Shown here in pieces: positions 273 through 63,796 of a DNA stretch of 64,000 nt (position 1 is the stretch's first letter; every line of letters starts with the position of its first letter). Position numbers and translations under genes: made by a program. This DNA comes from Lachnospiraceae bacterium (GTDB lineage: Bacteria; Bacillota; Clostridia; Lachnospirales; Lachnospiraceae). The notes under the pieces were generated by a model. It searched no databases. It saw nothing but the letters and a program-made list of their open reading frames with translations, and was not told the origin of the DNA. The DNA is taken from contig JAFZVZ010000040.1 of assembly GCA_017617545.1 (NCBI GenBank), forward strand, positions 1-64,000, written 5' to 3'.

Positions 273-316
273 TTTCGGAAAATGAGCCGCCCGACGCGAG
301 GGGGCATTTTCCGAAA
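273..316. repeat. hairpin made by an inverted pair of the GGAAAATG motif
   Basis: TTTCGGAAAATG at 273-284 is followed 20 bases later by its exact reverse complement CATTTTCCGAAA at 305-316, giving a perfect 12-bp stem with a GC-rich loop. It lies in the 5' leader between the promoter at 230-258 and the gene at 369. There is no T-run, so it is not an obvious terminator. Confidence 0.7.
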
Positions 317-368
317 GATCCGGAGGGGTTTCGGATCGGTCAACGCAGAGATTGAGAAAGGGAAAGTT

Positions 369-1127
369 ATGGCAGATGAATACCAGCAGGGCCAGGTGCC
401 CGCAGGAGCCGCTCCGGCAGGCGTGATGCCGGATGGGACGCAGCAGATCCCGCAGTTTACACAGCAGCAGTTCACACAGCAGCCGGTGAAGAAGGCAAAG
501 AAGATCAACTTCAAGCTGATATTCTTTTTTCTGGTGATCATCGCGGCAGTCGGATACTACGGATACCAGTACTTCCTGGCACCGACGCCGGAGTTCACGG
601 TGAACGGTACGAAGTTTACGATGAAGAGCACCCCGGATGATTTTATGAAGGCAGGCCTTGTGATCTGTGACAGCAAGGGCAAAGTCGTTGATCTTACCGG
701 CAACAGCGTGCTGCCCAAGACGGTGCTCAATACCGAGTACCAGATCGGGCTTCCGCTCAGCGACAGCTACGCAACGCCCACCGGTATTTTCTTCAAGGTC
801 ATGAACACAGCGACCAACGCGAAGGGTGTGAAGAACTGTCAGGTGTATTCCGTTACGTATTGGCCGGGTCAGGATAAGACCGGCGGTGCGGTCAAGTTCA
901 ACGGACAGGACCTTACGGACCTTGATCCGAAAAAGTGGGTTGAGGCGTTCAAGGCTGCTAAATATCCGTTCTCCGACAAGGAGCTCGGACAGTTTGAGAC
1001 CGGCGGCACGACGATCGTCCTCGGCGAGCGCGGACAGTACAAGTATGAGGCGAAAACGGAGACAGGTTCCGGTACGCCTTCGTTTATCAAGTTTACAAAC
1101 GGGATCAAGACGGAGACAAGCAAGTAA
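369..1127 (+). CDS. single-pass membrane protein with Q/P-rich N terminus, function unknown
   Basis: 252 residues from the ATG at 369, which follows a purine-rich GAGAAAGGGAAAG stretch; an upstream in-frame ATG at 270 lies in the hairpin and was not used. Residues 1-45 are low complexity, rich in Gln, Pro and Ala, and end in a Lys-rich patch. One hydrophobic segment at about 48-68 (LIFFFLVIIAAVGYYGYQYF) is followed by an outward-facing domain of about 180 residues with no family I recognise. It has its own promoter and a terminator, so it is probably monocistronic. The architecture (disordered cytoplasmic head, one membrane span, extracellular domain) resembles the zinc-ribbon protein at 21041. 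I do not assign a function. Confidence 0.8.
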   Translation: MADEYQQGQVPAGAAPAGVMPDGTQQIPQFTQQQFTQQPVKKAKKINFKLIFFFLVIIAAVGYYGYQYFLAPTPEFTVNGTKFTMKSTPDDFMKAGLVICDSKGKVVDLTGNSVLPKTVLNTEYQIGLPLSDSYATPTGIFFKVMNTATNAKGVKNCQVYSVTYWPGQDKTGGAVKFNGQDLTDLDPKKWVEAFKAAKYPFSDKELGQFETGGTTIVLGERGQYKYEAKTETGSGTPSFIKFTNGIKTETSK

Positions 1128-1150
1128 TACGGATAATCAGGACAATAGGA

Positions 1151-1182
1151 GAGCCCGGTGCAATGTGCGCCGGGCTCTTTTG
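1151..1182 (+). terminator. Rho-independent terminator
   Basis: GAGCCCGG at 1151-1158 pairs with CCGGGCTC at 1170-1177, followed by TTTTGG. It closes the gene ending at 1127. Confidence 0.8.
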
Positions 1183-1237
1183 GTGTGTCGTGAAATTGTG
1201 TTAATGAACGGTTGATCGCTTCCGCGCGATCAGTGCA

Positions 1238-2293
1238 TCACTCGGCCGTCTTGAACGCCAGCTGCGCGAAGTTGTAGAAGCCGAGGTACCAGATGTTGAA
1301 ATCGTGGTTGCCGGCCTTCTCCTGCCACATGAAGTTCTCGCCGTCGACGAGCTTGTCCGTGTACTTCGGCAGGTTCTTGGCAGCGGCCGAGGCGCTCGCG
1401 TACGCGATGTTGTCCTGCAGACCGCAGATGTTGTACATGTAGTTGATCTTGTACTGCGCGAACTGTTCGCCGTCAATGATCGAAGCGATCTTGTCGGACG
1501 TATAGGATGTCGGCGCAGCGGAAAATGTACCGAACCAGCTGATGATGTCCAGGCACTCACACATGCCGATGTTGATCGTCTGCATGCCGCCCATGGACAG
1601 GCCGGCCATCGCGCGGTGATCGCGAACAGCGGTCGGATCGGCGTCGTCGTGGTACACTGCGAAATTGCTCTCGATGTACGGGATCAGATCGTTTCGGAGC
1701 TCCTGTCCGAAGACGTAGAAGGAAGCGTAGTCGCCGTCCTTGTTCGCAAAATCATAGTAGGAGCGTCCGTTCGGCGCAACCACGATGAACGGCTCGATGT
1801 CGCCGTAGCGGATCAGGTTGTCCATGATGGCCTTGACCGTGGAGGACAGACCCGTCATGCCCCACTCGGTTTCGTCTCCGCCGATGCCGTGCATCAGGTA
1901 GAGCACGTTGTACTGCTTCGTCTCGTCGTAATCCGGCGGGAGATAAACGTACGCCGGCTTGGTGAGCGTTGCCTGATCGTTCAGGTAGTCCTTCGTCTCA
2001 TAGGTGATCTGCACGATCTCTCCGCAGTTCTTAAGACGATACGTCGAGTAGTCGGTAGGGATGCGGGTGTCGATCTTTGCGTGAGGTCCGATCGTCGGCG
2101 TGGGCGTCGGATCCTCCTCGGGCGCCGTCGGCGTCGGAGTGTCGGCAGCGGGCGCTTCCGTCGGCGTTGCCGGCGTTTCGGACGGAGCCTCCGTTGCGGC
2201 GGGGGTTCCATTTTCCGAAGAAGAGTCCTTGCCGCAGGCAATGAAAAGCGCTGCCATGGCAATAATTAACAATACAAGAGACAGTTGTTTCAT
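1238..2293 (-). CDS. secreted lipoprotein esterase, carbohydrate esterase family 1 / esterase D type
   Basis: 351 residues. The start is the ATG at 2293, whose ATGA overlaps the stop of the upstream MarR gene; a TTG four codons further out is possible. The N terminus is a signal peptide ending in FIAC, a lipoprotein cleavage box. A Thr/Pro/Glu-rich linker of about 60 residues follows. The alpha/beta-hydrolase domain has YVYLPPDY, LYLMHGIGGDETEW (oxyanion region), nucleophile elbow GLSMGG, and a late HDFNIW His typical of feruloyl/acetyl xylan esterases. It probably removes ester-linked side groups from plant polysaccharide at the cell surface; the substrate is inferred. It is transcribed behind the MarR regulator. 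In Butyrivibrio a MarR-family protein (CinR) is known to control the cinnamoyl esterase CinB, a suggestive parallel. Confidence 0.85.
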   Translation of the reverse strand: MKQLSLVLLIIAMAALFIACGKDSSSENGTPAATEAPSETPATPTEAPAADTPTPTAPEEDPTPTPTIGPHAKIDTRIPTDYSTYRLKNCGEIVQITYETKDYLNDQATLTKPAYVYLPPDYDETKQYNVLYLMHGIGGDETEWGMTGLSSTVKAIMDNLIRYGDIEPFIVVAPNGRSYYDFANKDGDYASFYVFGQELRNDLIPYIESNFAVYHDDADPTAVRDHRAMAGLSMGGMQTINIGMCECLDIISWFGTFSAAPTSYTSDKIASIIDGEQFAQYKINYMYNICGLQDNIAYASASAAAKNLPKYTDKLVDGENFMWQEKAGNHDFNIWYLGFYNFAQLAFKTAE

Positions 2294-2760
2294 AGTGACT
2301 TCCAATGTTCCTCCCAGGTTCCCTCGAGTTTACCTTCGATGTTTTTGCGTGCTTTTTGCATGAGTGTGATCAGTTGGGAGGCTTCCTCCGGAGTCATCCC
2401 TTCGAGCGCGATCCGGTCTGCCTGCGCGGCCTTTTCGGACACCTGGTGGGCCAGCTTGCGACCGTGGTCGGTCAGGTAGATCGCGTAGGCTCTCTTGCCG
2501 CCGGAGACATAGACGGTCTCCTTCTTGATCATGTCCTGCTTCTCCATCTTGGCGAGAAGCGAGGTCATCGTGGCCGGCTCCACACGGCACCTCGCTGCGA
2601 GATCCTTCTGCAGATACCCCTCCTCCTCAAACAGCACATTGAGAACCTTCGGCTGACCGCTGGTCAGACCGAGCGCGGCATAGTAGCGGGTGTTGTACGA
2701 CCTGTGCGCGTAATAGAGCGACAGCATTTCGCGAAAGAAGCGAGCATTTTCCTCAGCCAT
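2290..2760 (-). CDS. MarR-family transcriptional regulator
   Basis: 156 residues from the ATG at 2760, which has AGGAAAGGAG upstream at good spacing; a longer frame to 2793 lacks a site. It has the winged-helix pattern of MarR proteins: helical N terminus, GLTSGQPKVLNVLFEEEGYLQKDLAARC, then MTSLLAKMEKQDMIKK (recognition helix) and a wing ending in YAIYLTDHG. Its stop overlaps the esterase start (ATGA), so the two are translationally coupled. A palindromic operator candidate lies just upstream at 2792-2807 in its own promoter region, suggesting autorepression that also controls the esterase, perhaps relieved by an aromatic ligand. Confidence 0.9.
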   Translation of the reverse strand: MAEENARFFREMLSLYYAHRSYNTRYYAALGLTSGQPKVLNVLFEEEGYLQKDLAARCRVEPATMTSLLAKMEKQDMIKKETVYVSGGKRAYAIYLTDHGRKLAHQVSEKAAQADRIALEGMTPEEASQLITLMQKARKNIEGKLEGTWEEHWKSL

Positions 2761-2807: not shown

Positions 2808-2817
2808 AAGCGCCTAA

Positions 2818-4536: not shown

Positions 4537-6108
4537 TCACTCCGTTGCCGGAACGATCGGTTCTGCGTCATCCGCAGCGCCTGTGATGGTCTTGCCGTCC
4601 GTAACGATGGTCGTTGCGTTCTCAAGTCCGGTCACGTTGATGTTGCGGTTCACCTTGGCATCGTAGGACTCAGCGTTGATGATGTTGGCAAGGTCGATGC
4701 CGGTAGCCTGCTTCATGGATTCGAATACCTTAGCCATGACAACGGGTACATTGCCTGCGACCTGATCCACACCGTTCGCGCCGCCTTCGCCGCCGCCGAT
4801 GATCGTGATCTTGTCGATCTGCTGAAGAGGAGCGGCAACCTGAGCTGCGATCTCGGGAAGAACCCGGATCATCATCTCGGCTACGGCAGCCTTGTTGTAC
4901 TTCGCGTACGCCTCAGCCTTCTTCTCCATCGCCTGAGCCTCAGCAAGACCCTTGGCCTCGATCGCCTTAGCTTCTGCCTCACCTACGGCACGGATACCTT
5001 CAGCCTCCTGCTCCTTCGCGAAACGATCCGCAGCAGCCTGAGCCTTGCGGGCCTCAGCTTCACGCTGTGCCTCGAACTGCTTAGCTTCTGCGTCTTTCTG
5101 GCGCTGATACAGGATTGCGTCGGCCTTCTGCTGTGCAGCATACTTGTCGGCCTCGGCCTGCTTCTTGATCTCTGCTTCGAGGGCGCGCTCCTTGACGGCT
5201 ACGGCCTTCTCCTGCAATTCGATCTCACGCTCCTGACGGGCGATGTTTGCGTTAGCGGTCGTGATCTCGATCGTCTTACGCTGCTCTTCCTTCTGGATCT
5301 CGTATGCCGCGTCGGCCATAGCCTTCTTGGTGTCGGCATCGAGCTGCAGCTCGGATTTCTTGATCGCGAGTTCGTTCTGCTTCTTTGCGATCTCGGTCTG
5401 TGCGAGAACAGCTGCATCGTTGGACTCTTTGTCCGCGGCAGCCTGAGCGACCTTGATGTCTCTCTCGGACTCGGCACGCGCGATCGCAGCAGCCTTCTTG
5501 ATCTTTACGATATTGTCAATACCGAGGTTCTCAATGACTTCATTGCCGTCCACGAAATTCTGAACGTTGAAGGAGATGATGTCGAGACCCATGGCCGCGA
5601 GGTCGGGCTCAGCATTTTCCTTAACAAGGTTTGCGAACTTTTGGCGGTCGGAAACCATTTCCTCGAGCTTCATCTTACCGACGATCTCACGAACGTTACC
5701 TTCGAGCACCTCGCGCGCTACCGCAGCTACGTAATCGGTGGGTTTGTTCAGGAAGTTCTCGGCAGCCAGACGAAGCTTGTCGGGCTCGTTGCTGATCTTT
5801 ACGTTGACGGTCGCGTCAACATTGATATTGATGTAATCCGCGGTCGGGACGGCGTTGCTGGTCTTAACGTCGATCGGGATCAGACGAAGGTTCAGCTTAT
5901 CCATACGCTCGAAGAACGGAAAGCGGAAGGATGCGCGTCCGATGACTACCTTGGACTTGTGCTTCATACCGGAGATGATGTATGCCATGTCCGGCGGAGC
6001 CTTGACGTAGCCTGCAATGAAGATCAGAACTGCGGCTATGATAATGCAGATCACTACAATGCCGGCAGGCGACTGTATGAAATCTGCAAAGGACAGAAAT
6101 GATACCAT
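4537..6108 (-). CDS. flotillin-like SPFH/Band 7 membrane scaffold protein
   Basis: 523 residues from the ATG at 6108, which has GGGGGA nine bases upstream; an upstream in-frame ATG at 6129 is less likely. One hydrophobic segment (about 12-33, GIVVICIIIAAVLIFIAGYV) anchors it in the membrane. An SPFH domain follows (VKAPPDMAYIISG, then VDATVNVKISNEPDKLRLAAENFL), then a long Ala/Glu/Lys-rich coiled coil at about 200-420 with EAEAKAIEAKGLAEAQAMEKKAEA repeats, and a C-terminal segment with IIGGGEGG. This matches FloT/YuaG-type flotillins, which organise membrane microdomains. No NfeD partner gene adjoins it. It is probably monocistronic, with its own terminator and a perfect palindrome about 110 bases upstream. 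Confidence 0.9.
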   Translation of the reverse strand: MVSFLSFADFIQSPAGIVVICIIIAAVLIFIAGYVKAPPDMAYIISGMKHKSKVVIGRASFRFPFFERMDKLNLRLIPIDVKTSNAVPTADYININVDATVNVKISNEPDKLRLAAENFLNKPTDYVAAVAREVLEGNVREIVGKMKLEEMVSDRQKFANLVKENAEPDLAAMGLDIISFNVQNFVDGNEVIENLGIDNIVKIKKAAAIARAESERDIKVAQAAADKESNDAAVLAQTEIAKKQNELAIKKSELQLDADTKKAMADAAYEIQKEEQRKTIEITTANANIARQEREIELQEKAVAVKERALEAEIKKQAEADKYAAQQKADAILYQRQKDAEAKQFEAQREAEARKAQAAADRFAKEQEAEGIRAVGEAEAKAIEAKGLAEAQAMEKKAEAYAKYNKAAVAEMMIRVLPEIAAQVAAPLQQIDKITIIGGGEGGANGVDQVAGNVPVVMAKVFESMKQATGIDLANIINAESYDAKVNRNINVTGLENATTIVTDGKTITGAADDAEPIVPATE

Positions 6109-6234: not shown

Positions 6235-6298
6235 TTTGTAAAAGATATTTCCTATCAGAGTTTTGGGAAAATGATTCCCGTGCTGTAAAACAGGTCTT

Positions 6299-7126: not shown

Positions 7127-7168
7127 GGTGATCTCATTTTCCGCGCGATGATAACGGATCTACGGATT

Positions 7169-7903: not shown

Positions 7904-8084
7904 CGGTGACGAAACCCTCCTTGTGCGCAACGAAATCGTGTCGAAGGCCGCCGCGGGATGCCCCGTGACGACGACCAAACCTATTATACATAATCTTCGC
8001 GACAATTGCATCGTTATTTTTCGGAAAATGAGCCGCGACCCGTGAGATGCGCGCGTACAGCCCGCTCCCGTGGGGAAAAAACAG

Positions 8085-8120: not shown

Positions 8121-8452
8121 AATCTGATACTTTTCGGCGATGAAGGGAAGAGTACCGATGCGAATCCGCCACAGAGAATCCGGGTAGCTGAGAACGGAGC
8201 GGGGAACGACATCGCGAACATGGTCCCGGAGCTGCGGGGGCGAGGCGCGAAAGCGCTTAGGTTCCGCCGGGTGCGCCCGTTAGAGCGCAGGGCTGTCGAT
8301 GATCGGCATAGGTGCGGTTTGCGTCGGAAACGCAACAGGAGGACCGCGCGAAGCAGGATTTTCCGCAGCTGCTGAGGCATAGAACTATGCGAAATAAAGT
8401 GGTACCACGAAGTCACGGACTCTCGTCTTTATGTAAGACGGGAGTCCTTTAC
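8121..8452 (+). promoter_or_regulatory. T-box leader, predicted specifier AUG (methionine)
   Basis: Stem I has the AGAGAATCCGGGTAGCTGAGA-like landmark at about 8174 and a candidate AUG specifier at 8220-8222 in GAACATGG. The T-box core AATAAAGTGGTACCACG is at 8393-8409. It is followed by the terminator stem 8417-8429 / 8435-8447 (GGACTCTCGTCTT with AAGACGGGAGTCC) and a T-rich run. Uncharged tRNA-Met would stabilise the antiterminator and allow metG expression. The downstream gene is methionyl-tRNA synthetase, which fits the specifier. A copy of CATTTTCC sits directly after the terminator stem at 8452. Confidence 0.93.
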
Positions 8453-8512
8453 ATTTTCCGGCTGAAGGTATCGGAGCAAATCAGGAGTATCAATCAAGCA
8501 GGAGGACGAACA

Positions 8513-10594
8513 ATGGCAGAGAAGAAACCTTACTACATCACAACCGCCATCGCGTACGCGTCGGGCAAGCCGCACATCGGCAACACCTACGAGGCGATCC
8601 TGGCGGATGCCATCGCGCGCTTTAAGCGCTACCAGGGCTACGACGTGTTCTTTCAGACGGGCACGGACGAGCATGGACAGAAGAACGAGATCAAGGCGTT
8701 CGAGGCGGAGCTGACGCCGAAGGAATTTGTCGACCGGACAGCCGGCGAGATCCGCAGGATCTGGGACCGCGTCAACACCTCGTACGACAAATTCATCCGC
8801 ACGACCGACGCGGACCACGAGCTTCAGATCCAGAAGATTTTCCGGAAAATGTATGAAAAGGGCGACATTTACAAGGGCAGCTACGAGGGCCTGTACTGTA
8901 CGCCCTGCGAGTCGTTCTGGACGGAGTCGCAGCTTGTGAACGGCTGCTGCCCGGACTGTGGGCGCCCGGTTCAGCCGGCGAAGGAGGAGGCATACTTCTT
9001 CAAGATGAGCAAGTATGCGGACCGCCTGATCGAGCACATCAACACGCATCCCGAGTTTATCCAGCCCGAGAGCCGAAAGAACGAGATGATGAACAACTTC
9101 CTGCTGCCCGGTCTGCAGGATCTGTGCGTATCGAGAACGTCATTCAAATGGGGCATTCCGGTGGATTTCGATGACAAGCACGTCGTGTACGTATGGCTCG
9201 ACGCGCTCTCGAACTATATCACGGGCATCGGTTATGACGCGGACGGCAACAGTACGGAGCAGTTTAACAAATTCTGGCCTGCCGACCTTCATCTGATCGG
9301 CAAGGACATCATCCGCTTCCATACGATCTACTGGCCGATCTTCCTGATGTCTCTCGACGTGCCGCTTCCGAAGCAGGTGTTCGGACACCCGTGGCTTCTG
9401 CAGGGCGGCGACAAGATGAGCAAATCGAAGGGCAACGTCATCTACGCGGACGATCTGATCGACCTGTTCGGTGTGGACGCGACGAGATATTTCGTGCTTC
9501 ATGAGATGCCGTTTGACAACGACGGCGTGATCACGTGGGAGCTTGTCGCGGAGCGCACAAACTCCGATCTCGCGAACACGCTCGGCAACCTCGTGAACCG
9601 CACGATCTCCATGAGCAACAAGTATTTTGACGGCGTTGTGAAGCAGACCGGAGCGACGGAGGAGGTCGACGACGATCTCAAGGCCGTGGTGACGGGAACG
9701 GCTGCGCGCGTGGCGGCAAAGATGGACAACCTTCGCGTTGCCGACGCGATCACCGAGATCTTCACGCTGTTCAAGCGCTGCAACAAATACATCGACGAGA
9801 CGACGCCGTGGGCGCTCGCGAAGGACGAGGCCAAGGCTGACCGCCTCGCGGAGGTTCTGTACAACCTGACCGAGTCGATCCTGATCGGCGCATCGCTTCT
9901 GAAGAGCTTCCTGCCCGAGACGGCGGACCGCATCGCTGCACAACTGAACGGTACGCTTCGCGGTTGCGAGGAGCTTGACAAGTTCGGTCTGTACGAAAGC
10001 GGCACGAAGGTAACCGCGACGCCCGAGATCCTGTTTGCCCGCATCGACTGGAAGGAGATCGAGCCGAAGATCGCCGAGATCCGCGCCGCGCAGAAGGCGG
10101 AGTACGAGGAGGAGCAGGCCCGCGTGGCAGCGGTTTACGCTAAGCACGGAAAGACGCCTCAGGGAACGCCGATCGCTGCGGCAACAGCCGATACTTCGAA
10201 AAATGAGACACCTGTCGCGCAAGGCGCCGACGGCGCTGCTGAGGGCGTGATCGATGTGGAGCCGAAGGCGGAGATCTCGTACGATGATTTTGCGAAGCTT
10301 CAGTTCCGCGTTGGCAAGATCATCGCCTGCGAGGAGGTTCCGAAGTCGAAGAAGCTGCTGTGCTCGAAGGTACAGGTCGGCAGCAAGGTGCTTCAGATCG
10401 TGTCCGGCATCAAGCAGCATTACAGCGCGGCGGAGATGGTCGGCAAGCGCGTGATGGTGCTCGCGAACCTGAAGCCGGCGACGCTGGCCGGGATCGTATC
10501 CGAGGGAATGCTTCTTTGCGCGGAGGATTCCGAGGGGAATCTGTCGCTCATGACACCCGAGAAGGCAATGCCCGCGGGAGCGGAGATCCTTTGA
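8513..10594 (+). CDS. metG: methionyl-tRNA synthetase with C-terminal tRNA-binding domain
   Basis: 693 residues from the ATG at 8513, just after GGAGGACGAACA. It joins methionine to tRNA-Met in the cytoplasm. Class I signatures are visible: the HIGH box as PHIGN near residues 20-24 and KMSKS at about 301-305. The zinc-knuckle Cys pattern CTPCE...CCPDC sits at about 125-155, and the anticodon-binding helical domain is in the second half. An Ala/Glu-rich linker leads to a C-terminal Trbp111-type domain (FAKLQFRVGKIIACEEVPKS to the end), which increases tRNA affinity. Expression is controlled by the T-box leader upstream. A hairpin terminator follows at 10612. Copies of GGAAAATG lie within it at 8844 and just before it at 8452. 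Confidence 0.97.
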   Translation: MAEKKPYYITTAIAYASGKPHIGNTYEAILADAIARFKRYQGYDVFFQTGTDEHGQKNEIKAFEAELTPKEFVDRTAGEIRRIWDRVNTSYDKFIRTTDADHELQIQKIFRKMYEKGDIYKGSYEGLYCTPCESFWTESQLVNGCCPDCGRPVQPAKEEAYFFKMSKYADRLIEHINTHPEFIQPESRKNEMMNNFLLPGLQDLCVSRTSFKWGIPVDFDDKHVVYVWLDALSNYITGIGYDADGNSTEQFNKFWPADLHLIGKDIIRFHTIYWPIFLMSLDVPLPKQVFGHPWLLQGGDKMSKSKGNVIYADDLIDLFGVDATRYFVLHEMPFDNDGVITWELVAERTNSDLANTLGNLVNRTISMSNKYFDGVVKQTGATEEVDDDLKAVVTGTAARVAAKMDNLRVADAITEIFTLFKRCNKYIDETTPWALAKDEAKADRLAEVLYNLTESILIGASLLKSFLPETADRIAAQLNGTLRGCEELDKFGLYESGTKVTATPEILFARIDWKEIEPKIAEIRAAQKAEYEEEQARVAAVYAKHGKTPQGTPIAAATADTSKNETPVAQGADGAAEGVIDVEPKAEISYDDFAKLQFRVGKIIACEEVPKSKKLLCSKVQVGSKVLQIVSGIKQHYSAAEMVGKRVMVLANLKPATLAGIVSEGMLLCAEDSEGNLSLMTPEKAMPAGAEIL

Positions 10595-12700: not shown

Positions 12701-13627
12701 ATGGCATTTGAGGTGAAAAAACTCAACAAATCGTTCGGCATCGGCGGCGCGCGCCGCAGAGTTGTCAAGAATTTTTCGATGAAGGTGCTGGACAACGAGA
12801 TGGTGGCGATCGTCGGCAAGAAGGGCAGCGGCAAGAGCACTCTCATGAATATGCTCGGCGGCCTGATCGCTCCGGACAGCGGCACGATCACCGTTGACGG
12901 ACGCCGGATCTACTTCTGGAATCCGTTCCAGAGAGCGATCCTGCGCAACAAGCGCGTCGGCATTGTGCCGCGCGACTCGCTGCTGATCTCCGATATGACG
13001 ATCTACGAGAACCTGCTGCTCCCGATGGGACACAAGTTCATGACTTCGAAGCGGAAAATGCGCCGCGCAAAGGAAGTTCTCCGCGCCGTCGGTCTCAAGG
13101 GCTTTGGCAAATACTACCCCGCCGACCTGGAGGAGTTTGAGATTCAGAAGGTCTGCCTGGCACGTGCCATCATGACCAACCCGAAATATTTGATCCTTGA
13201 CGAGCCCACCGGCAATCTGCAGTCCGCGGATGTCGACCGGTTCATGGATATCGTTGAGATCCTGCGCAGCAGCGGCTTTACCATCATCGTGCTCACGCAC
13301 TCCCGCCGCGTCGCGAGCCATTGCGAGCGTCTGATCCCGATCGCCCAGCCGAGAACCTCGGTACAGCAGGTGGCTGACGAGGACGATGAGGACGAGGATG
13401 ACGAGGAAGAGGAGATCGGCAAGACCGCGAAGATCCCCGAGACCTCCGTTGCCTCCGAGGATGAGGATGAGGAAGAGCCGTCCGAGGATGAGGACGACGA
13501 TGATGAGGATGTCACGCTCGCGAAGAAGTACGAGAGCGACGATGACGAAGACGATGATGACGACGAGGACGTTACCCTGGCGAAAAAATACGCGCAGGAG
13601 AACGAGGAGGACGCGGAGGACGAGTGA
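12701..13627 (+). CDS. ABC transporter ATP-binding protein with divergent signature motif and acidic tail
   Basis: 308 residues, starting at the ATG at 12701 behind an AGGAGG site. The first 220 residues form an ABC ATPase: Walker A GKKGSGKST, Walker B YLILDEPTG, and H-loop LTHS. The usual LSGGQ signature is missing; the equivalent stretch reads DLEEFEIQKVCLARAI. The Q-loop also looks changed (IVPRDSLL). Residues about 225-308 are almost entirely Asp and Glu, with the heptad VTLAKKY occurring twice. It is the obvious partner of the permease just upstream. The altered signature suggests slow or regulatory ATP use, or a partner-dependent pair. The acidic tail is low complexity and its role is unknown. 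Confidence 0.85.
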   Translation: MAFEVKKLNKSFGIGGARRRVVKNFSMKVLDNEMVAIVGKKGSGKSTLMNMLGGLIAPDSGTITVDGRRIYFWNPFQRAILRNKRVGIVPRDSLLISDMTIYENLLLPMGHKFMTSKRKMRRAKEVLRAVGLKGFGKYYPADLEEFEIQKVCLARAIMTNPKYLILDEPTGNLQSADVDRFMDIVEILRSSGFTIIVLTHSRRVASHCERLIPIAQPRTSVQQVADEDDEDEDDEEEEIGKTAKIPETSVASEDEDEEEPSEDEDDDDEDVTLAKKYESDDDEDDDDDEDVTLAKKYAQENEEDAEDE

Positions 13628-16741: not shown

Positions 16742-16783
16742 CGACACACCCGGTGCTCGCACACATTTTCCGAATAAAAAGAA

Positions 16784-21922: not shown

Positions 21923-21934
21923 AGGAAAATGACC

Positions 21935-46291: not shown

Positions 46292-46339
46292 CGGAACATT
46301 TTCCGAGAGACAGGATTACCTATTGTGGGAGGTATCAGT

Positions 46340-50872: not shown

Positions 50873-51139
50873 GATAAAAACTCCGTACTCCCCACAAGGA
50901 AGCATCGGCGCGCAGCCGGCTTCCGAACCATACCTCTGCGTCGGCCCCGATCCAACCCCGCGGATCAAAAGGCCATACACAATAATGATACCACATTTTC
51001 CGTGGCAAATCAACTGTTGCGGGTGTGGGGAAGGTGACCATGCGCGGATGAAAAAAAGTATGAAAAAAGACAGACATGCGGTATAGTTGAAATAAGAAAT
51101 CCCGGAAGTTTTAGTAAGTAAAAGATAAGTGAAGGAGAA

Positions 51140-52297: not shown

Positions 52298-52587
52298 ATG
52301 AGTGACCTTATGAAGTATAAGTTTTTTGACGATAAGGAGCTTTCTAGATGATGGGGAAGAGTATATATGAGGAGATCGCGGACATCGAGGATCAAGACAT
52401 TCTCGATGCGGAAAATGTTGTGAAACGCTGGGGTGGCAACTCGTGGTTGAGCGGCTGGGGTGAACGTAACCGGAGTTGTAGCACGGCGAAGAATAATCGG
52501 AAAATAATCAGAGGGAATGAGCGGCATTCCCTCATTTTTCGTAAATTCAACGATGCAGTTGTTTCACGTCCGTTGACGGCAAATTAG
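52298..52587 (+). pseudogene. two overlapping short frames, possibly one frameshifted small gene
   Basis: A 17-codon frame (MSDLMKYKFFDDKELSR, 52298-52351) ends in TGA that overlaps ATG at 52348 (ATGA), starting a 79-codon frame (MMGKSIYEEIADIEDQD..., 52348-52587). The second has AAGGAG upstream. Joined with a one-base shift, the two read as one acidic helical protein, so this may be a broken gene or a translationally coupled pair. A terminator lies within the second frame, so its last 20-25 residues are unlikely to be made. No family assigned. Confidence 0.4.
52511..52539 (+). terminator. Rho-independent terminator
   Basis: GAGGGAATG (52511-52519) pairs with CATTCCCTC (52525-52533), followed by ATTTTTC. 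It falls inside the 79-codon frame. Confidence 0.75.
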
Positions 52588-54127: not shown

Positions 54128-54982
54128 TTATTTTTTCGCGGCCTTCGTCTGCGCGGAGGAGCGGTCCACCAGCGTGTCCGTGAGGAGCATTTTCCGAAGG
54201 ATCGTCTTGACGGTGCTGTCGAGTTCACTGCCCTCGCGGTAGTCCGCAGGCTCGATGAAATTGACGCGGTTGTCGGTGAGCAGCGGCCGTACCTTCGGAA
54301 GCGTCTCGTCGCGGTACACGGCGATCGAGTAGCCGCCGTTGACCTTCACGAGCTTCATGCACGGCACGTCCGTCAGGCCGTCGCCGATGTAGATCATGTT
54401 GCGGAATGGCACGGGGCGCTCGTCCTCGGGAGTGTATGTGTTGAGAGTGGCGTCGTCGCTGATGTCGAGCACGCCCTTGTTGATGCGGAACAGAAACTGC
54501 GTCTTCGTCGTGTAGTTGACCGCGTTCTTCGGCCAGCACGCGACGCCGTTTTCGTCGTAGAGAAACTCGCAGGCAAATACCTCGCGGAACGCCTTGAAGA
54601 TCTCCGAGCCCTCGATGATCTCGCGCAGGCCGGAGGAGATGATGTAATGCTCCACGGTGACGCCGATCTCGTCGCCGAAGCGGCGGATGCGCTCAAACCA
54701 GTCCGTGACGCCGGGGAAGAACTCGAGGTCCTTGCCGTGCTCAACGAAATCTTCGCGGCGGATGCTGCGGTGCGCGTTGCGAGAACGGTCGAGCATCAGG
54801 TACATGTAGGCGAGGACGCTGTCCATTTTCCGCTCCGTGGCGAGTGCCTGCGCCTCCGCCCAGAACGCCTCGGCGGTCATGCCGACCTTGGGGATGAACG
54901 TGTACTCCTCCATATCCTTCGTGCAAAGTGTCTTGTCAAAATCATACATGATGGCCACGACCGGCCGTTCGGAAGTTTTCAT
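54128..54982 (-). CDS. HAD-superfamily hydrolase
   Basis: 284 residues from the ATG at 54982; a frame to 55099 is unsupported. Motif I is IMYDFDKTLCTKD with the nucleophilic Asp and its +2 Asp. Motif II is in the stretch VEHYIISSG, and motif III is NMIYIGDGLTDVPCMKL. A helical cap lies between motifs I and II (VGMTAEAFWAEAQALATERK...). It is a phosphatase-like enzyme of the phosphoserine phosphatase-like group; substrate unknown. Neighbour genes do not point to a pathway. Two motif copies lie in it (54188, 54824). Confidence 0.9.
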   Translation of the reverse strand: MKTSERPVVAIMYDFDKTLCTKDMEEYTFIPKVGMTAEAFWAEAQALATERKMDSVLAYMYLMLDRSRNAHRSIRREDFVEHGKDLEFFPGVTDWFERIRRFGDEIGVTVEHYIISSGLREIIEGSEIFKAFREVFACEFLYDENGVACWPKNAVNYTTKTQFLFRINKGVLDISDDATLNTYTPEDERPVPFRNMIYIGDGLTDVPCMKLVKVNGGYSIAVYRDETLPKVRPLLTDNRVNFIEPADYREGSELDSTVKTILRKMLLTDTLVDRSSAQTKAAKK

Positions 54983-56247: not shown

Positions 56248-56293
56248 TATGTTCCCCGGAACGATGATAGAAAAGAAAAGGAAAATGGTCTGT

Positions 56294-57943: not shown

Positions 57944-58006
57944 CATTTTCCTTGCGAAACGGACGGTTTTATACTAATATGGTTTCGGGTGTGTAATCGG
58001 AAAATG
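57944..58006. repeat. paired GGAAAATG motif copies in an intergenic gap
   Basis: CATTTTCC at 57944-57951 and GGAAAATG at 57999-58006 face each other across 47 bases in the 285-base gap upstream of the rhomboid gene. The distance is larger than in the hairpin pairs, so folding is less certain. No gene is seen in the gap. Confidence 0.6.
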
Positions 58007-58093: not shown

Positions 58094-59275
58094 ATGTGGG
58101 AGAAACTGACGCAGTATTTCAGCGGGCGCGGGTTGAAGGAAGTGAACCTCAACCGTGACGATATGCGTCTTTACTATGCGTCGGAAGGCAAATCGGCAGA
58201 CCCCGTCTGGCTGATCAACGATGCCGCGGTCGCCGCTCTGACGAAAGAAAAATACAACAGATATATGGAGACGATCCGCAGCATTTTCCAAAAACAGGGC
58301 TTCGAGACCGTCTCGATGCTGACGCTTTTTGTCACGGGTCGGATCGGACAGTGCAAGGAAGTCGGCGAGGGGTCCGCGTTCTGGATCGTGGACGCGGATT
58401 ACGGCAGACTGATCGTATATGAAAACCAGCCGGAGGATTTCCTTGGGATCCGCTCGGTGATCGAGAACAATCTGCATTTCGGCGGACACAGCCGCAACGC
58501 GGAGGGCGCGCAGACGGACCTTGATCACGACAATTTTCGCGCGGCGAGCAGGGTTGCCGCGTACAGCCGCGATGCCGTGACGCGCGTTGACAAAACCAGG
58601 GCTGACGCTTACCTTGAGGAGCAGAGAAGACAGAACCGGTACCGCACGTCGCAGCGGCGGAGCGGCCTTCAGAACGTATGCATCGTGACGGCAGTGCTGA
58701 TCGGCATCAATCTGGTCATTTTCCTGCTCACCGACCTGTTTGAGCTGGTCGGCATCCTCGAGAAGGGCCAGATGAGCTGGCGAACGGTGGTCACGGAGCA
58801 CGGTTACTACCGGCTGTTCACATGCATGTTCCTGCATTACGGCATCGATCATGTCGGCGGTAACATGATCGCGCTGTATGCGCTCGGCGGCGAGCTTGAG
58901 AGGCAAATGTTCCGCGTCCGTTACATCATCCTCTACCTCGTGTCCGGCCTCGGCGCATCGGTGGTGTCGTGCATTTACTATCATTATTTTACGAATATCG
59001 ACCCGTATTCAGCAGGGGCATCCGGCGCGATCTACGGATTGATGGGCGCGTTCCTTGTGATGCTGATCATGCATCCCGAGCAGCGGCGGAGAAACAACGC
59101 GACGCGAGTCGTGATCTTCGCGGCGTACCTGATCTACAGCTTTGTCCGCGCGGACGCCAACGTCAACCTTGCCGCGCACTTCGGCGGCCTGGTGGTCGGC
59201 GCGCTTCTGTACCCGATCCTCGACGGCATCCGTACGAAGCGGATCCGCGAGTGGGATCGGAAGCGGAAAATGTAG
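58094..59275 (+). CDS. rhomboid-family intramembrane serine protease with a soluble N-terminal domain
   Basis: 393 residues from the ATG at 58094 behind AAAGGAG. The first 190 residues are soluble and end in a basic stretch (RRQNRYRTSQRRSG). The membrane part (about 200-375) has six to seven spans with GASGAIYGLMGAF (active Ser), NMIALYALGGELE and AAHFGGLVVGALLY (His partner). It cleaves membrane protein substrates. The N-terminal domain is of a type I do not recognise. It is followed by a small conserved gene on the same strand. Confidence 0.9.
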   Translation: MWEKLTQYFSGRGLKEVNLNRDDMRLYYASEGKSADPVWLINDAAVAALTKEKYNRYMETIRSIFQKQGFETVSMLTLFVTGRIGQCKEVGEGSAFWIVDADYGRLIVYENQPEDFLGIRSVIENNLHFGGHSRNAEGAQTDLDHDNFRAASRVAAYSRDAVTRVDKTRADAYLEEQRRQNRYRTSQRRSGLQNVCIVTAVLIGINLVIFLLTDLFELVGILEKGQMSWRTVVTEHGYYRLFTCMFLHYGIDHVGGNMIALYALGGELERQMFRVRYIILYLVSGLGASVVSCIYYHYFTNIDPYSAGASGAIYGLMGAFLVMLIMHPEQRRRNNATRVVIFAAYLIYSFVRADANVNLAAHFGGLVVGALLYPILDGIRTKRIREWDRKRKM

Positions 59276-59746: not shown

Positions 59747-61306
59747 ATGGCATATATAGCGCTGTATCGGAAATTCCGCCCGAGCACATTTGACGAAGTC
59801 AAAGGCCAGGACGCGGTCGTTACCACGCTGCGGAACCAGCTGCGGACGGGACGGATCGGCCATGCGTACTGCTTCAACGGAACACGCGGAACAGGAAAGA
59901 CGTCGGTAGCCAAAATACTGGCGAAGGCGATCAACTGCGAGAACCCGGTCGACGGAAATCCGTGCAACGAATGTGCGATGTGCAAGTCGATCAACGACGG
60001 AAGCTCCATGAACGTCGTCGAGCTCGACGCGGCGTCCAACAACGGCGTTGCGAACATCCGCGAGATCGTGGATGAGGTGCGGTATTATCCGACGGAAGGC
60101 AAATACAAAGTATACATCATCGACGAGGTCCACATGCTCTCGACAGGTGCATTTAACGCGCTGCTGAAGACGCTCGAGGAACCGCCGTCGTATGTGGTGT
60201 TCATATTGGCGACGACCGAGGTGCACGCGATCCCGATCACGATCCTCTCGCGCTGCCAGCGGTACGATTTCAAGCGTATCCGCGTCGAGACCATCACGGA
60301 CCGGCTGCTGGAGCTGTGCGATCGGGAAGAGATCGCGACGGAAGAGAAGGCGATGCGCTATGTGGCGCGGCTTGCGGACGGATCGATGCGTGACGCGCTC
60401 TCGTTGCTTGAGCGATGCGTCTCGTACTACGCGGGAGAGGAACTGACCTACGACCGCATTTTGGAGGTGCTCGGCACCGTCGATGTGGAGACATTTGCCT
60501 TGGCGCTTCGATATATTCACGACGGGAAGATCCCGAAGATCATTCGGCTTCTGGACGAGATGACCGTCGCGGGGCGCGAGCTTCCGCGGTTCATCGTCGA
60601 CCTGACATGGTATCTGCGAAATCTGCTGCTCGCCCAGTCCGGCGAGGACCTGAGCGAGGCGCTGGAGATGTCCGGCGAGCAGATGAAGCTCCTGGCGCAC
60701 GAGGCCAAGGTGTACGCACCGGAGGAGCTGATGCGCTACATCTCCGTGCTGTGCGAGCTGACCAACCGCCTGCGCCACGAGTCGCAGAAGCGGGTGCTCA
60801 TCGAGATGACGGTGGTGCGCCTGTGCCGGCCGCAGGTCGATATCGACAACGAGGCTGTGCTGGACCGCATCCGTCGTTTGGAAAATGAGCTGGCTGTCCT
60901 TCGCAAGACCGGCATCTCTGCCCCCGCGGCGGAGCCGGAGGAAGAGGAGGCACCGAAGGAGAAGCTGAAGATCGCGCTTCCCGAGGACATCCTGGATGTC
61001 GTGAAGAACTGGCCGACACTGTGCAACATGGCACCGCAGCCCGCGCGGCTGGCGATGAAGGTGTGCACGCCGAGCCTGAGCCGCAGCGGAAACCTGCTTT
61101 TGGTGTTCACGACGTCGACGGACTTCAACCTGATCAACTCGATGAACCATATCGAGCAGGTTGAGAAGACGATCGAGAAGGTCATCCACCACAAGGTTAC
61201 GGTGGAGGTTGAGCAGCTCAAGGAGGGCGAGGATCCCGGCAAGTACGTCGATCTGAGCGATGCCATCGCGGGCCGCCTCGGTGACGTGGAAGTGGAGATC
61301 ATTTAA
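59747..61306 (+). CDS. dnaX: DNA polymerase III subunit gamma/tau
   Basis: 519 residues from the ATG at 59747 behind AAAGGAG. It has the clamp-loader AAA+ domain: YIALYRKFRPSTFDEVKGQ, Walker A GTRGTGKT (about 43-50), the zinc-binding Cys cluster NPCNECAMC, Walker B VYIIDEVHMLS, and SRC motif ITILSRCQRYDF. Domain III follows, and a Glu/Pro-rich segment leads to the C-terminal tau part. It loads the sliding clamp. The order dnaX - ybaB - recR is the conserved recombination/replication cluster. Confidence 0.97.
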   Translation: MAYIALYRKFRPSTFDEVKGQDAVVTTLRNQLRTGRIGHAYCFNGTRGTGKTSVAKILAKAINCENPVDGNPCNECAMCKSINDGSSMNVVELDAASNNGVANIREIVDEVRYYPTEGKYKVYIIDEVHMLSTGAFNALLKTLEEPPSYVVFILATTEVHAIPITILSRCQRYDFKRIRVETITDRLLELCDREEIATEEKAMRYVARLADGSMRDALSLLERCVSYYAGEELTYDRILEVLGTVDVETFALALRYIHDGKIPKIIRLLDEMTVAGRELPRFIVDLTWYLRNLLLAQSGEDLSEALEMSGEQMKLLAHEAKVYAPEELMRYISVLCELTNRLRHESQKRVLIEMTVVRLCRPQVDIDNEAVLDRIRRLENELAVLRKTGISAPAAEPEEEEAPKEKLKIALPEDILDVVKNWPTLCNMAPQPARLAMKVCTPSLSRSGNLLLVFTTSTDFNLINSMNHIEQVEKTIEKVIHHKVTVEVEQLKEGEDPGKYVDLSDAIAGRLGDVEVEII

Positions 61307-61732: not shown

Positions 61733-61817
61733 GTTACGCACGCTTGTAGGCTTGCGCACGGTTCGCGGCGATGAGCGCGAGCTCATCGATGAAAAAACGC
61801 TGGAGGATTGACCGGCC

Positions 61818-62414
61818 GTGGATTATTACAGCAAAACGACAACAAAACTGATCGCCGAGCTCGGGCATTTGCCAGGGATCGGCCAGAAGTCGGCGCAGCG
61901 GCTGGCGTTCCATATCCTTCACATGCCGGAGGAGCAGGTGCGCGACCTCTCGGCGGCAATTTTGGACGCGAGGACGAGCGCGCGGTTCTGCCGCGAGTGC
62001 TGCACGCTGACGGATGAGGACATATGCCCGATCTGCGCCAGCGACAAGCGTGACCACAAGACCATCATGGTCGTGGAGGACACGCGCGATCTCGTGGCGT
62101 ACGAGAAAACCGGCCAGTACAACGGCGTGTACCATGTGCTGCAGGGAGCGATCTCCCCGATGCAGGGCATCAATCCGACGGACATCCGTCTGAAGGAGCT
62201 GATGATCCGGCTGCAGGGGGACGTTGACGAGGTTATCCTCGCGACGAACTCTACGCTCGAGGGCGAGGCGACCGCGATGTACATCAGCAAGCTTCTAAAG
62301 GACACCGGCATCCGCGTGACGCGGATCGCGAGCGGTGTTCCGGTCGGCGGCGACCTTGAGTATGTCGACGAGGTGACGCTTTTGAAGGCGTTGGAAAATC
62401 GCACGGAACTGTAA
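61818..62414 (+). CDS. recR: recombination mediator RecR
   Basis: 198 residues, standard, from the GTG at 61818, with GGAGG 11 bases upstream. The helix-hairpin-helix LGHLPGIGQKSAQRLAFHIL, zinc finger CRECCTLTDEDICPIC and Toprim domain (VVEDTRDLVAYEKTGQYNGVYHVL) are all present. With RecO and RecF it loads RecA at gaps. The order is dnaX-ybaB-recR. Confidence 0.96.
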   Translation: MDYYSKTTTKLIAELGHLPGIGQKSAQRLAFHILHMPEEQVRDLSAAILDARTSARFCRECCTLTDEDICPICASDKRDHKTIMVVEDTRDLVAYEKTGQYNGVYHVLQGAISPMQGINPTDIRLKELMIRLQGDVDEVILATNSTLEGEATAMYISKLLKDTGIRVTRIASGVPVGGDLEYVDEVTLLKALENRTEL

Positions 62415-62487
62415 GGGAAGCGGGATCATTTTCCGAAGAAGAGACAGAACAGACAGCAATTAACCGAGGAGGAAAGGAGGGACCCCG

Positions 62488-63687
62488 TTGGACGAGGGAA
62501 CAAAGCAAGTCACAAAGGAATACACGGGGGAATCCCGCTTTCGTCCGATCTACATTTTGATCATTGCGGCTGTCATCATCCTGGTCGGCGTTGTGGTCGG
62601 CTGGATGATCAAGAGAAGCAAGGATCGCAAGACCTACGCCGCGTATGACGTGGTGAAGATGAAGCAGATGCCGTTCACGACGGTCAGCGGAATTCTTCCG
62701 ATCCGCGACGGCGTGCTCCGGTACGCGCGGGACGGCGCGGAGGCGGTCAACCAGGACGGCGAGAGCCTCTGGAACGTCTCCTACAACATGGCCAACCCGG
62801 TGGCGGACACCTGCGGCAAATTCGCAGCGGTCGGCGATGCCGGCGGCGTTTCTCTCTACATCATGGACGGTACGGGCTCGTTCAGCAACGTGACGACCGA
62901 CCATTCGATCGTTCGCGTCGCGGTGGCGGCGAACGGTGAGACCGCCGTTCTGATGGACGACGGCAAGGAGGATTATATCTCCATTTACCATGCGGACGGA
63001 ACCCGTGTGGTGGACATGAACACGGTTACGAACGTGAACGGTTTCCCGCTCGATATCGCGATCTCGGAGGACGGCGCCAAGCTTGTCGTGTCGTTCGCGT
63101 ACTTCGACGATGACGCGGTCCGCTCGCGGCTTGTATTTTACAATTTCGGAGGTGTCGGCCGGAGTTACTACGACGGCATGGTCGGCAAGGCGGAATCCGT
63201 GACAACGGACTACCCCGACAACCTCTATGCGGATGTGGAGTTTGTCACCAACGACCGCGTCGCGGTGTTCGGTGACCGCGGGCTTCTCGTGTACGAGATG
63301 GAGGAGATCCCGAACCTCGAGCCGAAGCAGATCACCTACACGGGAACGATCCGCAGGTTCACGTTCAGCGGCAAGTACATCGGTCTTCTGACCGAGAAGC
63401 GCGACGGCGGACGCATCCAGTATGAGGTTACGCTGTACGACACAAACGGAGCGCAGGTTGAGACGCGCACCATGGACAACTATTACAGCGGCTTCCGGAT
63501 CGACGGGGGCGATGTAATACTCTACAGCGATACGTCGCTGTACATTTACCGCATCAAGGGCAGGGACAAGTACAAAAACTCTGTTTCGCGGGCGGTAAGC
63601 TACTGCTTCGCCACGAGCGAAGACAACGGTTTCGTGCTGATCTTCGACAATCAGTTCAACCGGATCCGGCTGATCGGCGGGGAGTGA
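62488..63687 (+). CDS. DUF5711-like membrane-anchored beta-propeller protein
   Basis: 399 residues from the TTG at 62488, well placed after AAAGGAGGG. One membrane span at about 20-44 (IYILIIAAVIILVGVVVGWMI) is followed by a domain of repeated four-stranded blades (GESLWNVSYNM, GKFAAVGDAGGVSLYIMDGTG, GETAVLMDDGKEDYISIYHADGTRV...). That layout matches the DUF5711 family of Lachnospiraceae. The TTG start is unusual but the spacing is good. Probably cotranscribed with the following CvpA-like gene. Function unknown. Confidence 0.85.
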   Translation: MDEGTKQVTKEYTGESRFRPIYILIIAAVIILVGVVVGWMIKRSKDRKTYAAYDVVKMKQMPFTTVSGILPIRDGVLRYARDGAEAVNQDGESLWNVSYNMANPVADTCGKFAAVGDAGGVSLYIMDGTGSFSNVTTDHSIVRVAVAANGETAVLMDDGKEDYISIYHADGTRVVDMNTVTNVNGFPLDIAISEDGAKLVVSFAYFDDDAVRSRLVFYNFGGVGRSYYDGMVGKAESVTTDYPDNLYADVEFVTNDRVAVFGDRGLLVYEMEEIPNLEPKQITYTGTIRRFTFSGKYIGLLTEKRDGGRIQYEVTLYDTNGAQVETRTMDNYYSGFRIDGGDVILYSDTSLYIYRIKGRDKYKNSVSRAVSYCFATSEDNGFVLIFDNQFNRIRLIGGE

Positions 63688-63765
63688 CGTGTCACAACCG
63701 CGGTGACGCCGAAGACAGTTCTTTCCGCGCCGCTTTGTGAGGCCGGCGGGAGAGAACAGGGCAGG

Positions 63766-63796
63766 CGGAAAATGAAGCGGCTCCGCTCATTTTCCG
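63766..63796. repeat. hairpin made by an inverted pair of the GGAAAATG motif
   Basis: CGGAAAATG (63766-63774) and CATTTTCCG (63788-63796) pair, with AGCGG/CCGCT extending the stem inward and one bulged A. The loop is only CT. It lies between the DUF5711-like and CvpA-like genes, and resembles the hairpin at 20811. Confidence 0.75.

What the first reader, a model, noticed from the sequence alone, without database searches (positions are those of the whole stretch)
277..63795. GGAAAATG is about 40-fold over-represented: an uptake-sequence-like or other genome-wide DNA signal
By hand I count about 55 copies of GGAAAATG/CATTTTCC, one per 1.2 kb. Base composition predicts about 1.4 in 64 kb. The preceding base is C in about 36 copies, and the copies lie evenly on both strands (26/29). 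Such density and lack of orientation are known for DNA uptake sequences in Neisseria and Pasteurellaceae, but I know of no such sequence described in Lachnospiraceae-like Firmicutes. Chi-like, segregation-signal, methylation-site or nucleoid-protein-site explanations remain open. No competence genes are in the window.
Basis: partly seen in the sequence, partly recalled or inferred. Interest (0 to 1): 0.9.

Follow-up and report, generated by a model that had tools for sequence, protein, structure and literature searches.

The report
DNA-uptake-like word marking Lachnospiraceae genomes
A gut-type bacterium of the Firmicutes carries the short DNA word CGGAAAATG, whole or nearly so, about once every 1.6 kilobases, its relatives carry altered spellings of it, and the pattern looks like the self-recognition tags that some Gram-negative bacteria use to take up their own DNA.

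Summary
In detail: 55 copies in the window (26/29 by strand; shuffles give 2.3) and 1672 in the 2.73-Mb genome (821/851; reversed word 29). The core is CGGAAAATG; the outer bases and third base vary, the inner G and AAAAT hardly do. Most of the genus is enriched; two sister species show none in samples. Spellings follow a tree: CGGAAAATG, mixed GG[AC]AAATG, and CGG[GTC]CAATG in another genus (GGNCAATG 2302 against 162). Density, lack of replication orientation, 33% of sites in the 13% noncoding DNA, excess of inverted pairs (some hairpins), depletion from one of two prophage samples, and synonymous-codon conservation (138/169 against 91 expected) match DNA uptake sequences (DUS/USS). The genome has a type IV pilus operon, ComEA and ComEC. 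Chi, inserted repeats, codon bias and start-site explanations are disfavoured. Uptake itself is untested. Against: the two motif-less species keep pilus, ComEA and ComEC; one motif-rich genome (87% complete) shows no PilB; density peaks between divergent genes. The abstracts and passages I saw place uptake sequences in Neisseriaceae and Pasteurellaceae. Best reading: an independently evolved uptake-sequence system in Lachnospiraceae, about 65% likely.

The parts
276..313 (.). convergent inverted pair CGGAAAATG ... CATTTTCCG (sites 277-284 + and 305-312 -), intergenic, hairpin/terminator-like
   Evidence: RNA fold -22.2 kcal/mol, z -3.6
20811..20844 (.). convergent inverted pair (sites 20812-20819 + and 20836-20843 -), hairpin, intergenic
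   Evidence: fold -18.6, z -3.1
63766..63796 (.). convergent inverted pair (sites 63767-63774 + and 63788-63795 -), hairpin, intergenic
   Evidence: fold -17.7, z -2.9
57944..58006 (.). divergent pair (57944-57951 - and 57999-58006 +), between divergent genes; no special fold
   Evidence: fold z 0.04
18677..18742 (.). divergent pair (18677-18684 - and 18735-18742 +) inside a gene
1520..1527 (+). GGAAAATG site
2209..2216 (-). GGAAAATG site
2745..2752 (-). GGAAAATG site
5613..5620 (-). GGAAAATG site
6266..6273 (+). GGAAAATG site
7135..7142 (-). GGAAAATG site
8023..8030 (+). GGAAAATG site
8452..8459 (-). GGAAAATG site
8844..8851 (+). GGAAAATG site
13053..13060 (+). GGAAAATG site
14480..14487 (-). 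GGAAAATG site
15561..15568 (-). GGAAAATG site
16764..16771 (-). GGAAAATG site
17128..17135 (+). GGAAAATG site
21924..21931 (+). GGAAAATG site
22539..22546 (+). GGAAAATG site
24281..24288 (-). GGAAAATG site
28596..28603 (+). GGAAAATG site
29963..29970 (-). GGAAAATG site
30531..30538 (+). GGAAAATG site
33617..33624 (+). GGAAAATG site
35467..35474 (-). GGAAAATG site
37154..37161 (-). GGAAAATG site
39023..39030 (+). GGAAAATG site
39956..39963 (-). GGAAAATG site
40145..40152 (+). GGAAAATG site
41507..41514 (-). GGAAAATG site; reads GGCAAATG in L037
42546..42553 (-). GGAAAATG site
43090..43097 (+). GGAAAATG site
43717..43724 (+). GGAAAATG site
46297..46304 (-). GGAAAATG site; differs by one base in L036 and in L037
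49429..49436 (-). GGAAAATG site
49579..49586 (-). GGAAAATG site
49877..49884 (+). GGAAAATG site
50735..50742 (+). GGAAAATG site
50994..51001 (-). GGAAAATG site
52410..52417 (+). GGAAAATG site
54188..54195 (-). GGAAAATG site; differs by one base in L037
54824..54831 (-). GGAAAATG site
56280..56287 (+). GGAAAATG site
58282..58289 (-). GGAAAATG site
58717..58724 (-). GGAAAATG site
59265..59272 (+). GGAAAATG site
60880..60887 (+). GGAAAATG site
62427..62434 (-). GGAAAATG site

Best explanation
CGGAAAATG is a DNA-uptake-sequence-like self tag of this Lachnospiraceae genus. Proposed working: in competent cells a DNA-binding minor pilin on the type IV pilus, or another surface receptor, binds the word in free DNA; the pilus retracts (PilT); ComEA hands the DNA to ComEC; the strand recombines into the chromosome. 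Because fragments with the word enter more often, the word accumulates by biased uptake and recombination until limited by coding constraint. A slow change of receptor specificity then shifts the whole genome to a new dialect, and loss of the bias lets the word decay. Shown here: density, symmetry, tolerance pattern, point-mutation turnover with synonymous conservation, dialects on a tree with a motif-less sister pair, co-presence of pilus, ComEA and ComEC genes. Inferred: sequence-specific uptake, competence itself, the receptor, molecular drive.
For: 1672 copies, 821/851, reversed word 29; all 21 other genus members exceed their reversed-word control, though G006 and G017 stand at the Markov expectation. 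Little conserved flank beyond the word. 86 of 259 sites (33%) intergenic in DNA that is 13% noncoding, genic sites 89 same strand and 82 antisense; a reviewer reply in PMC2346458 cites 65% of H. influenzae USS in ORFs against about 86% coding (passage). Convergent pairs within 60 bp 17 against 8.5, divergent 22 against 8.5, tandem 10 against 17.8. Dialects: GGCAAATG co-enriched in G007, G013, G016, G018, G008, G004 (sampled except G013); CGG[GTC]CAATG in another genus, G118 (GGNCAATG 2302 against 162); on the Mfd tree spellings cluster by clade and the two motif-less species are sisters inside the genus. Codons inside sites identical in 138 of 169 cases where the residue is conserved, 91.3 expected from the same codons elsewhere. 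Prophage stretches of G005: 3 sites in 40 kb, 18 expected. Type IV pilus operon, ComEA 22 of 22 genomes, 21 over the cut-off, ComEC 20 of 22.
Against: No uptake data. G006 and G017 lack the word but keep the pilus operon, ComEA and ComEC. G199 (87% complete) is rich in GGNCAATG (1171 against 83) yet has no strong PilB match. 93 of 200 family genomes have a strong PilB match; by my reading of the two tables only G000, G002, G118 and G134 of them show a comparable excess of either word tried. G015 and G016 have ComEC in two pieces but keep a whole-genome excess of the word. The prophage stretch of G008 is not clearly depleted (6 sites, about 10.5 expected by my arithmetic). The pilus region of this genome has a 21-kb gap without any site. 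Sites are densest in divergent intergenic DNA (1.89 per kb against 0.50 in genes), which a regulatory or nucleoid site would also give. Conservation between species is seen in genes (62 of 110 aligned sites) but not between genes (3 of 14), and not in G014 (7 of 21 against 27%). In G118 sites are not enriched between genes (7 of 82, 18% noncoding). Synonymous conservation and dialects show DNA-level maintenance, not uptake as such.
Confidence: 0.65

Rival explanations
1. The word is the binding site of an abundant cytoplasmic DNA-binding protein (nucleoid or chromosome-organising protein, or global regulator) that needs about 1700 widely spread sites.
For: Strand-symmetric, genome-wide, synonymous conservation, densest in divergent intergenic regions; gap CV 0.82 in 180 kb, slightly more even than random.
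Against: 369 of 513 sites lie inside genes; no sharp position relative to start codons; most of about 1700 sites would have to change with each dialect shift (G007, G016/G018, G118), unlike most global regulators (recalled).
Confidence: 0.17
2. A Chi-like recombination or repair signal for AddAB/RecBCD.
For: Frequent short non-palindromic word.
Against: Known Chi sites are skewed with replication (recalled); here 74 + against 85 - where GC skew is positive in every bin. Inverted pairs in excess.
Confidence: 0.05
3. A restriction-modification or methylation target, or protection mark.
For: None direct; methylation guiding uptake is known elsewhere (recalled).
Against: Strong over-representation of an 8-9-mer with tolerated positions and dialects is not expected of restriction targets (recalled); no methyltransferase was searched here.
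Confidence: 0.05
4. Mainly a transcription-terminator or RNA feature, or a start-site (RBS+ATG) word.
For: Four of five convergent pairs within 80 bp in 423 kb are intergenic, and all four fold into hairpins better than shuffles (z -2.9 to -3.6). CATTTTCC is the more frequent orientation after stop codons (61 against 36).
Against: Convergent pairs are a small minority (17 pairs among 738 merged sites); 4 of 513 sites coincide with a predicted start codon; sense and antisense genic sites nearly equal.
Confidence: 0.03
5. Debris of an inserted repeat (MITE/REP) or an effect of codon and amino-acid usage.
For: High copy number; one reading frame dominates on each strand.
Against: Hardly any conserved flank; some differences between species are single substitutions at tolerated positions; sites in both strands, all frames and between genes.
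Confidence: 0.02

Closest known systems
DNA uptake sequence (DUS) and its dialects, Neisseriaceae, receptor ComP
   Same: short non-palindromic word, 1543 to 3770 copies in the four genomes named in the passage seen of PMC3630211, inverted pairs linked to terminators, dialects along the phylogeny with a constant core; minor-pilin receptor on a type IV pilus there, type IV pilus genes here
   Different: unrelated word; Firmicutes family (monoderm, recalled) instead of betaproteobacteria; no uptake assay, no receptor shown
Uptake signal sequence (USS), Pasteurellaceae (receptor predicted to be ComN/PpdA, PMC12616744 passages)
   Same: 9-bp core, about two thirds of sites in genes (65% in H. influenzae per PMC2346458 passage; 66% here), evolution by point mutation (PMC7811141 passage)
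   Different: no AT tracts seen in the flanks; unrelated sequence; different phylum
HIP1 (GCGATCGC) of cyanobacteria (recalled)
   Same: very frequent strand-neutral word
   Different: HIP1 is a palindrome; this word is not
Chi sites (recalled)
   Same: frequent short word
   Different: no replication orientation here

Membership tests
DNA uptake sequences (DUS/USS) | hundreds to thousands of copies of a short non-palindromic word, far above chance, both strands | tested here: met
   1672 copies, 821/851, control 29
DNA uptake sequences (DUS/USS) | not inserted elements; arise by point mutation; kept at DNA level | tested here: met
   little flank; one-base differences; synonymous identity 138/169 against 91.3
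DNA uptake sequences (DUS/USS) | excess between genes and in inverted pairs | tested here: met
   33% of sites in 13% noncoding DNA; convergent 17 and divergent 22 against 8.5 each; but G118 7 of 82 intergenic with 18% noncoding
DNA uptake sequences (DUS/USS) | dialects along the phylogeny around a fixed core | tested here: met
   (tree of one protein)
DNA uptake sequences (DUS/USS) | type IV pilus plus ComEA and ComEC in motif bearers | tested here: inconclusive
   G000 has all three; ComEA 22/22, ComEC 20/22 in the genus; pilus operon read in G000, G011, G009, G002 and in part G018; but G199 shows no PilB and motif-less G006/G017 have all three
DNA uptake sequences (DUS/USS) | rare in recently acquired foreign DNA | tested here: inconclusive
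   G005 prophage stretches 3 against 18; G008 stretch not clearly depleted
DNA uptake sequences (DUS/USS) | DNA carrying the word is taken up preferentially | not testable with these tools
   needs a culture and an uptake assay
DNA uptake sequences (DUS/USS) | a receptor that binds the word | not testable with these tools
   candidate minor pilin only; in Pfam it matches only N_methyl, and its profile matches pilins, by their first part, in the PDB
Chi | orientation skew with replication | tested here: not met
   74 + and 85 - where GC skew is positive in every bin
HIP1-type palindromic word | palindrome | tested here: not met
   GGAAAATG is not its own reverse complement; flanks add no palindrome

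The most novel reading that the evidence does not exclude
Lachnospiraceae independently evolved sequence-specific DNA uptake, the first in Firmicutes and in monoderm bacteria as far as I know, with genus-level dialects (CGGAAAATG, GGCAAATG, CGG[GTC]CAATG) that act as barriers or bridges to gene exchange in the gut and rumen.
Probability: 0.55. Interest if true: 0.95.

Novelty: new variant of a known kind. Interest (0 to 1): 0.88.

Why it matters
In the abstracts and passages I saw, uptake sequences are placed in two Gram-negative families. A third, independent system in a dominant gut and rumen family would show that natural transformation with self-recognition is active there, would give a marker (motif density) for which uncultured species transform, and would separate the role of the outer membrane from that of the pilus in sequence recognition. 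The dialect series and the motif-less pair G006/G017 also give a natural experiment for finding the receptor.

Tried and rejected
Chi, inserted repeat, codon bias, start-site and terminator-only readings: see rivals. A CodY-box relation (AATTTTCWGAAAATT, recalled) was considered because of GAAAAT; set aside because the inner G and AAAAT are nearly fixed while neighbouring bases vary, and the flanks show no palindrome.

Minor-pilin charge as a sign of the receptor: the first minor pilin is basic or neutral in G000, G011, G009, G002, G016 (pI 6.9-9.3) but acidic in motif-bearing G001, G004, G008, G018 (5.3-5.8), near motif-less G006 (5.2) and G017 (4.8), so it does not separate them. The GspH/FimT-sized pilin (name mine, from size and position) is basic in the eight motif bearers in which I read it (pI 7.9-9.7; G000, G011, G009, G002, G018, G008, G016, G001) but also in motif-less G006 (8.8; G017 6.5), so this too is only a lead. 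PilB presence as a predictor is inconclusive. L066 (Md513_bin68) looked enriched for GGNCAATG (9 against 0) but the Markov expectation is 3.4: dropped as weak. G230 had a high genome count of GGNCAATG (631 against 62) but 1 in its 20-kb sample, which is full of repeats. (first tree) used wrong strands for several rows and is discarded.

Rows not used: the tree holds 20 of 22 genus genomes (G013 and G020, with Mfd in fragments, left out). K-mer spectra used samples (16-423 kb) of 18 of 22 genus genomes, not whole genomes; none was made of G003, G014, G020 or G021. G015 was sampled by 16 kb only (1 against 0.9), so its status rests on whole-genome counts. Structure prediction was not run because the proteins come from loci that its stated rule does not admit.
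Full report
1. The observation. GGAAAATG occurs 55 times in the window, 26 on + and 29 on -, against 2.28 in dinucleotide shuffles, none of 100 exceeding 6. CGGAAAAT also occurs 55 times and CGGAAAATG 36 times. In the whole genome (2.73 Mb, 45 contigs, 97.6% complete) there are 821 + 851 copies; the same word read backwards occurs 29 times.

2. The word. In 344 kb of this genome CGGAAAATG occurs 127 times against 9.2 expected by an order-3 Markov model. One-base variants at the first C (A 50/6.6, T 33/3.6, G 22/3.5), at the third base (T 34/4.0, A 32/6.6, C 12/4.8) and at the last G (A 41/6.9, C 30/7.7, T 25/6.1) are also in excess; variants at the inner G are only slightly above expectation (7-9 against 3.5-5.5) and those in AAAAT near or below it, but for one at the first A (C 17/6.2) and a small count at the last (G 5/2.3). 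Flanks carry little information (at most 0.31 bit, T at -1 and -5). So the unit is a 9-bp word with a rigid centre and soft edges, without the long shared flanks of an inserted element.

3. Where it sits. In 423 kb of this genome (my own gene caller, 86.7% coding) 259 sites divide into 86 between genes, 89 in genes on the coding strand, 82 on the other strand, 2 at edges; in genes one frame dominates on each strand (61 of 89 read xxG GAA AAT Gxx; 48 of 82 in one antisense frame). Over five genomes (513 sites, 859 kb) density is 0.50 per kb in genes, 1.05 in tandem, 0.83 in convergent and 1.89 in divergent intergenic DNA; 4 of 513 coincide with a predicted start codon. Pairs within 60 bp: convergent 17 (8.5 expected in 300 random placements), divergent 22 (8.5), tandem 10 (17.8). 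Three convergent pairs in this window (277/305, 20812/20836, 63767/63788) and one elsewhere (L033) fold into hairpins better than shuffles (z -2.9 to -3.6); a divergent pair (57944/57999) does not (z 0.04). Where GC skew is positive in every bin (window and 180 kb of contig C31) strands are 74 to 85.

4. Maintenance. Against seven motif-bearing relatives at 78-83% nucleotide identity, aligned window sites are conserved against the rate for 8-mers of like composition as follows: G011 13 of 20 (27%), G005 17 of 30 (30%), G009 14 of 23 (25%), G014 7 of 21 (27%, no excess), G019 4 of 7 (20%), G003 7 of 16 (17.5%), G002 3 of 7 (17%); in motif-less G006 and G017 0 of 5 each (5% and 9%). The excess is in genes (62 of 110), not between genes (3 of 14) (sums mine). 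A stricter control: where the residue is conserved, the codon inside a site is identical in 138 of 169 cases, 91.3 expected from the same codons elsewhere in the same alignments. These comparisons share sites between species, so they are not independent. Something acts on the DNA word itself, at least within genes.

5. Relatives and dialects. All 21 other genomes of the genus exceed their reversed-word control for GGAAAATG (221 to 1763 copies against 10 to 99); the 15 genomes of other genera of the family in that call exceed it 1.9 to 4.4 fold, the 24 of the order 0.7 to 4.3 fold. The reversed word is a crude control: samples of G023, G024, G052 and G043 show 4/3.0, 6/6.5, 5/5.6 and 7/3.6 against a Markov model. 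Part of the genus uses another spelling: GGCAAATG 622 copies in G007 (reversed 129; GGAAAATG 672), 614 in G013 (117; 491), 611 in G016 (185; 807), 512 in G018 (181; 728); sampled spectra of G007, G016 and G018 agree. G012 shows a further variant (GCAAAATGC, AAATGCGG) in 39 kb. G006 and G017 show none (7 against 6.8; 5 against 8.1). On an Mfd tree of 20 of 22 genus members G006 and G017 are sisters (99/98), next to G015 (an intermediate whole-genome excess, 374 against 59) and then G012 (clear motif bearer, but a long branch), so one loss is the simplest account; the mixed-spelling clade and the CGGAAAATG clade are each supported (100/100), and G007 is a later shift inside the latter (one protein only). 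In 200 family genomes (199 genera) CGGAAAATG stands out also in G118 (401 against 15) and G134 (337 against 20; sample GGAAAATG 31/6.7). In G118 the main word is CGG[GTC]CAATG: 82 GG[GTC]CAATG sites in 109 kb, and 2302 GGNCAATG genome-wide against 162; G199 has 1171 against 83, with GGGCAATG 10 against 0.5 in 20 kb. The series keeps C-G-G-x-x-A-A-T-G, as DUS dialects keep a core (PMC3630211, abstract and passages).

6. Machinery. This genome has an operon with PilB, PilT, PilC, two pilin genes, prepilin peptidase, PilM, a PilN/O-like protein and several minor pilins (contig C7; the PilN/O and peptidase names are mine from position and sequence), ComEA (SLBB and HHH domains) and, with three genes between, ComEC (748 aa from the first ATG). 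ComEA was found in 22 of 22 genus genomes (21 above the curated cut-off), ComEC in 20 of 22 (not found in two at 82% and 79% completeness; in two pieces in G015 and G016). DprA and other competence genes were not searched. Eight genomes of other genera tested all have ComEC. PilB matches are strong (E below 1e-90) in 93 of 200 family genomes, including G118 and G134 but not G199.

7. Foreign DNA. HK97-type capsid genes occur in 2 of 22 genus genomes. Two 20-kb stretches around them in G005 hold 3 sites where 18 are expected (P 2e-5); the stretch in G008 holds 6 of the two spellings where about 10.5 are expected, not a clear depletion, and its right part may be host DNA. Genes of these stretches were called but not identified one by one.

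8. Reading. An uptake sequence explains most of the set: density, symmetry, soft edges, gene/intergene split, inverted pairs, point-mutation turnover, dialects, a motif-less branch, and the machinery. The proportions resemble H. influenzae (65% of USS in ORFs, about 86% coding: reviewer reply in PMC2346458, passage). A nucleoid or regulatory protein site is the main rival; it fits the divergent-region density but not the dialect shifts. Not explained: retention of machinery in G006/G017, lack of PilB in G199, and a 21-kb gap without sites over the pilus operon (P about 2e-6 for one given gap).

9. Literature. Searches: four terms, 0 papers; 281 papers with either name, 30 listings seen; uptake sequence + Lachnospiraceae + competence: 1 paper, on Neisseria; 8 listings; the word itself: 0; 2, unrelated by their listings; no related listing among the 10 shown of 1,235. 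Passages seen: PMC13020248 (searched terminators of thousands of genomes and reports uptake sequences in Neisseriaceae and Pasteurellaceae), PMC12616744, PMC3630211, PMC2346458, PMC8897410, PMC7811141. None of these passages describes an uptake sequence in Firmicutes. The library holds open-licence papers only, so absence from print is not proven.

Noticed in passing
L123:13762 to L124:14877 (G000 contig C7): 21 kb without any GGAAAATG covers the type IV pilus operon and following genes; about 13 sites expected.
   Followed up: partly
G118 (L243-L247, L261) and G199 (L260): Two other Lachnospiraceae genera carry a different but related word, CGG[GTC]CAATG / GGGCAATG, at similar density; G199 shows no PilB.
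   Followed up: partly
L157, L172 (G012): G012 has a distinct word (GCAAAATGC / AAATGCGG) and two PilB-type ATPase genes on different contigs.
   Followed up: no
G015 contig C63, G016 contig C57: ComEC is in two pieces in both genomes, although whole-genome counts of the word are still above control.
   Followed up: no
G000 sample of 344 kb: Other words in excess: CTTGCCGA 98 against 32, AGGCTAAG 15 against 1.0; meaning unknown.
   Followed up: no
window 32613-32874: Bacterial large SRP RNA (RF01854, 172 bits).
   Followed up: no
G006 sample (L130, L137, L138, L238): A longer repeated sequence (words such as GATGAGAAGTGAAT) is the top outlier in this motif-less species.
   Followed up: no
L170, L171 (G043): Repeat with words CACACCTC / ACTCACAC in a genome of another family, looks like a local repeat family.
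   Followed up: no
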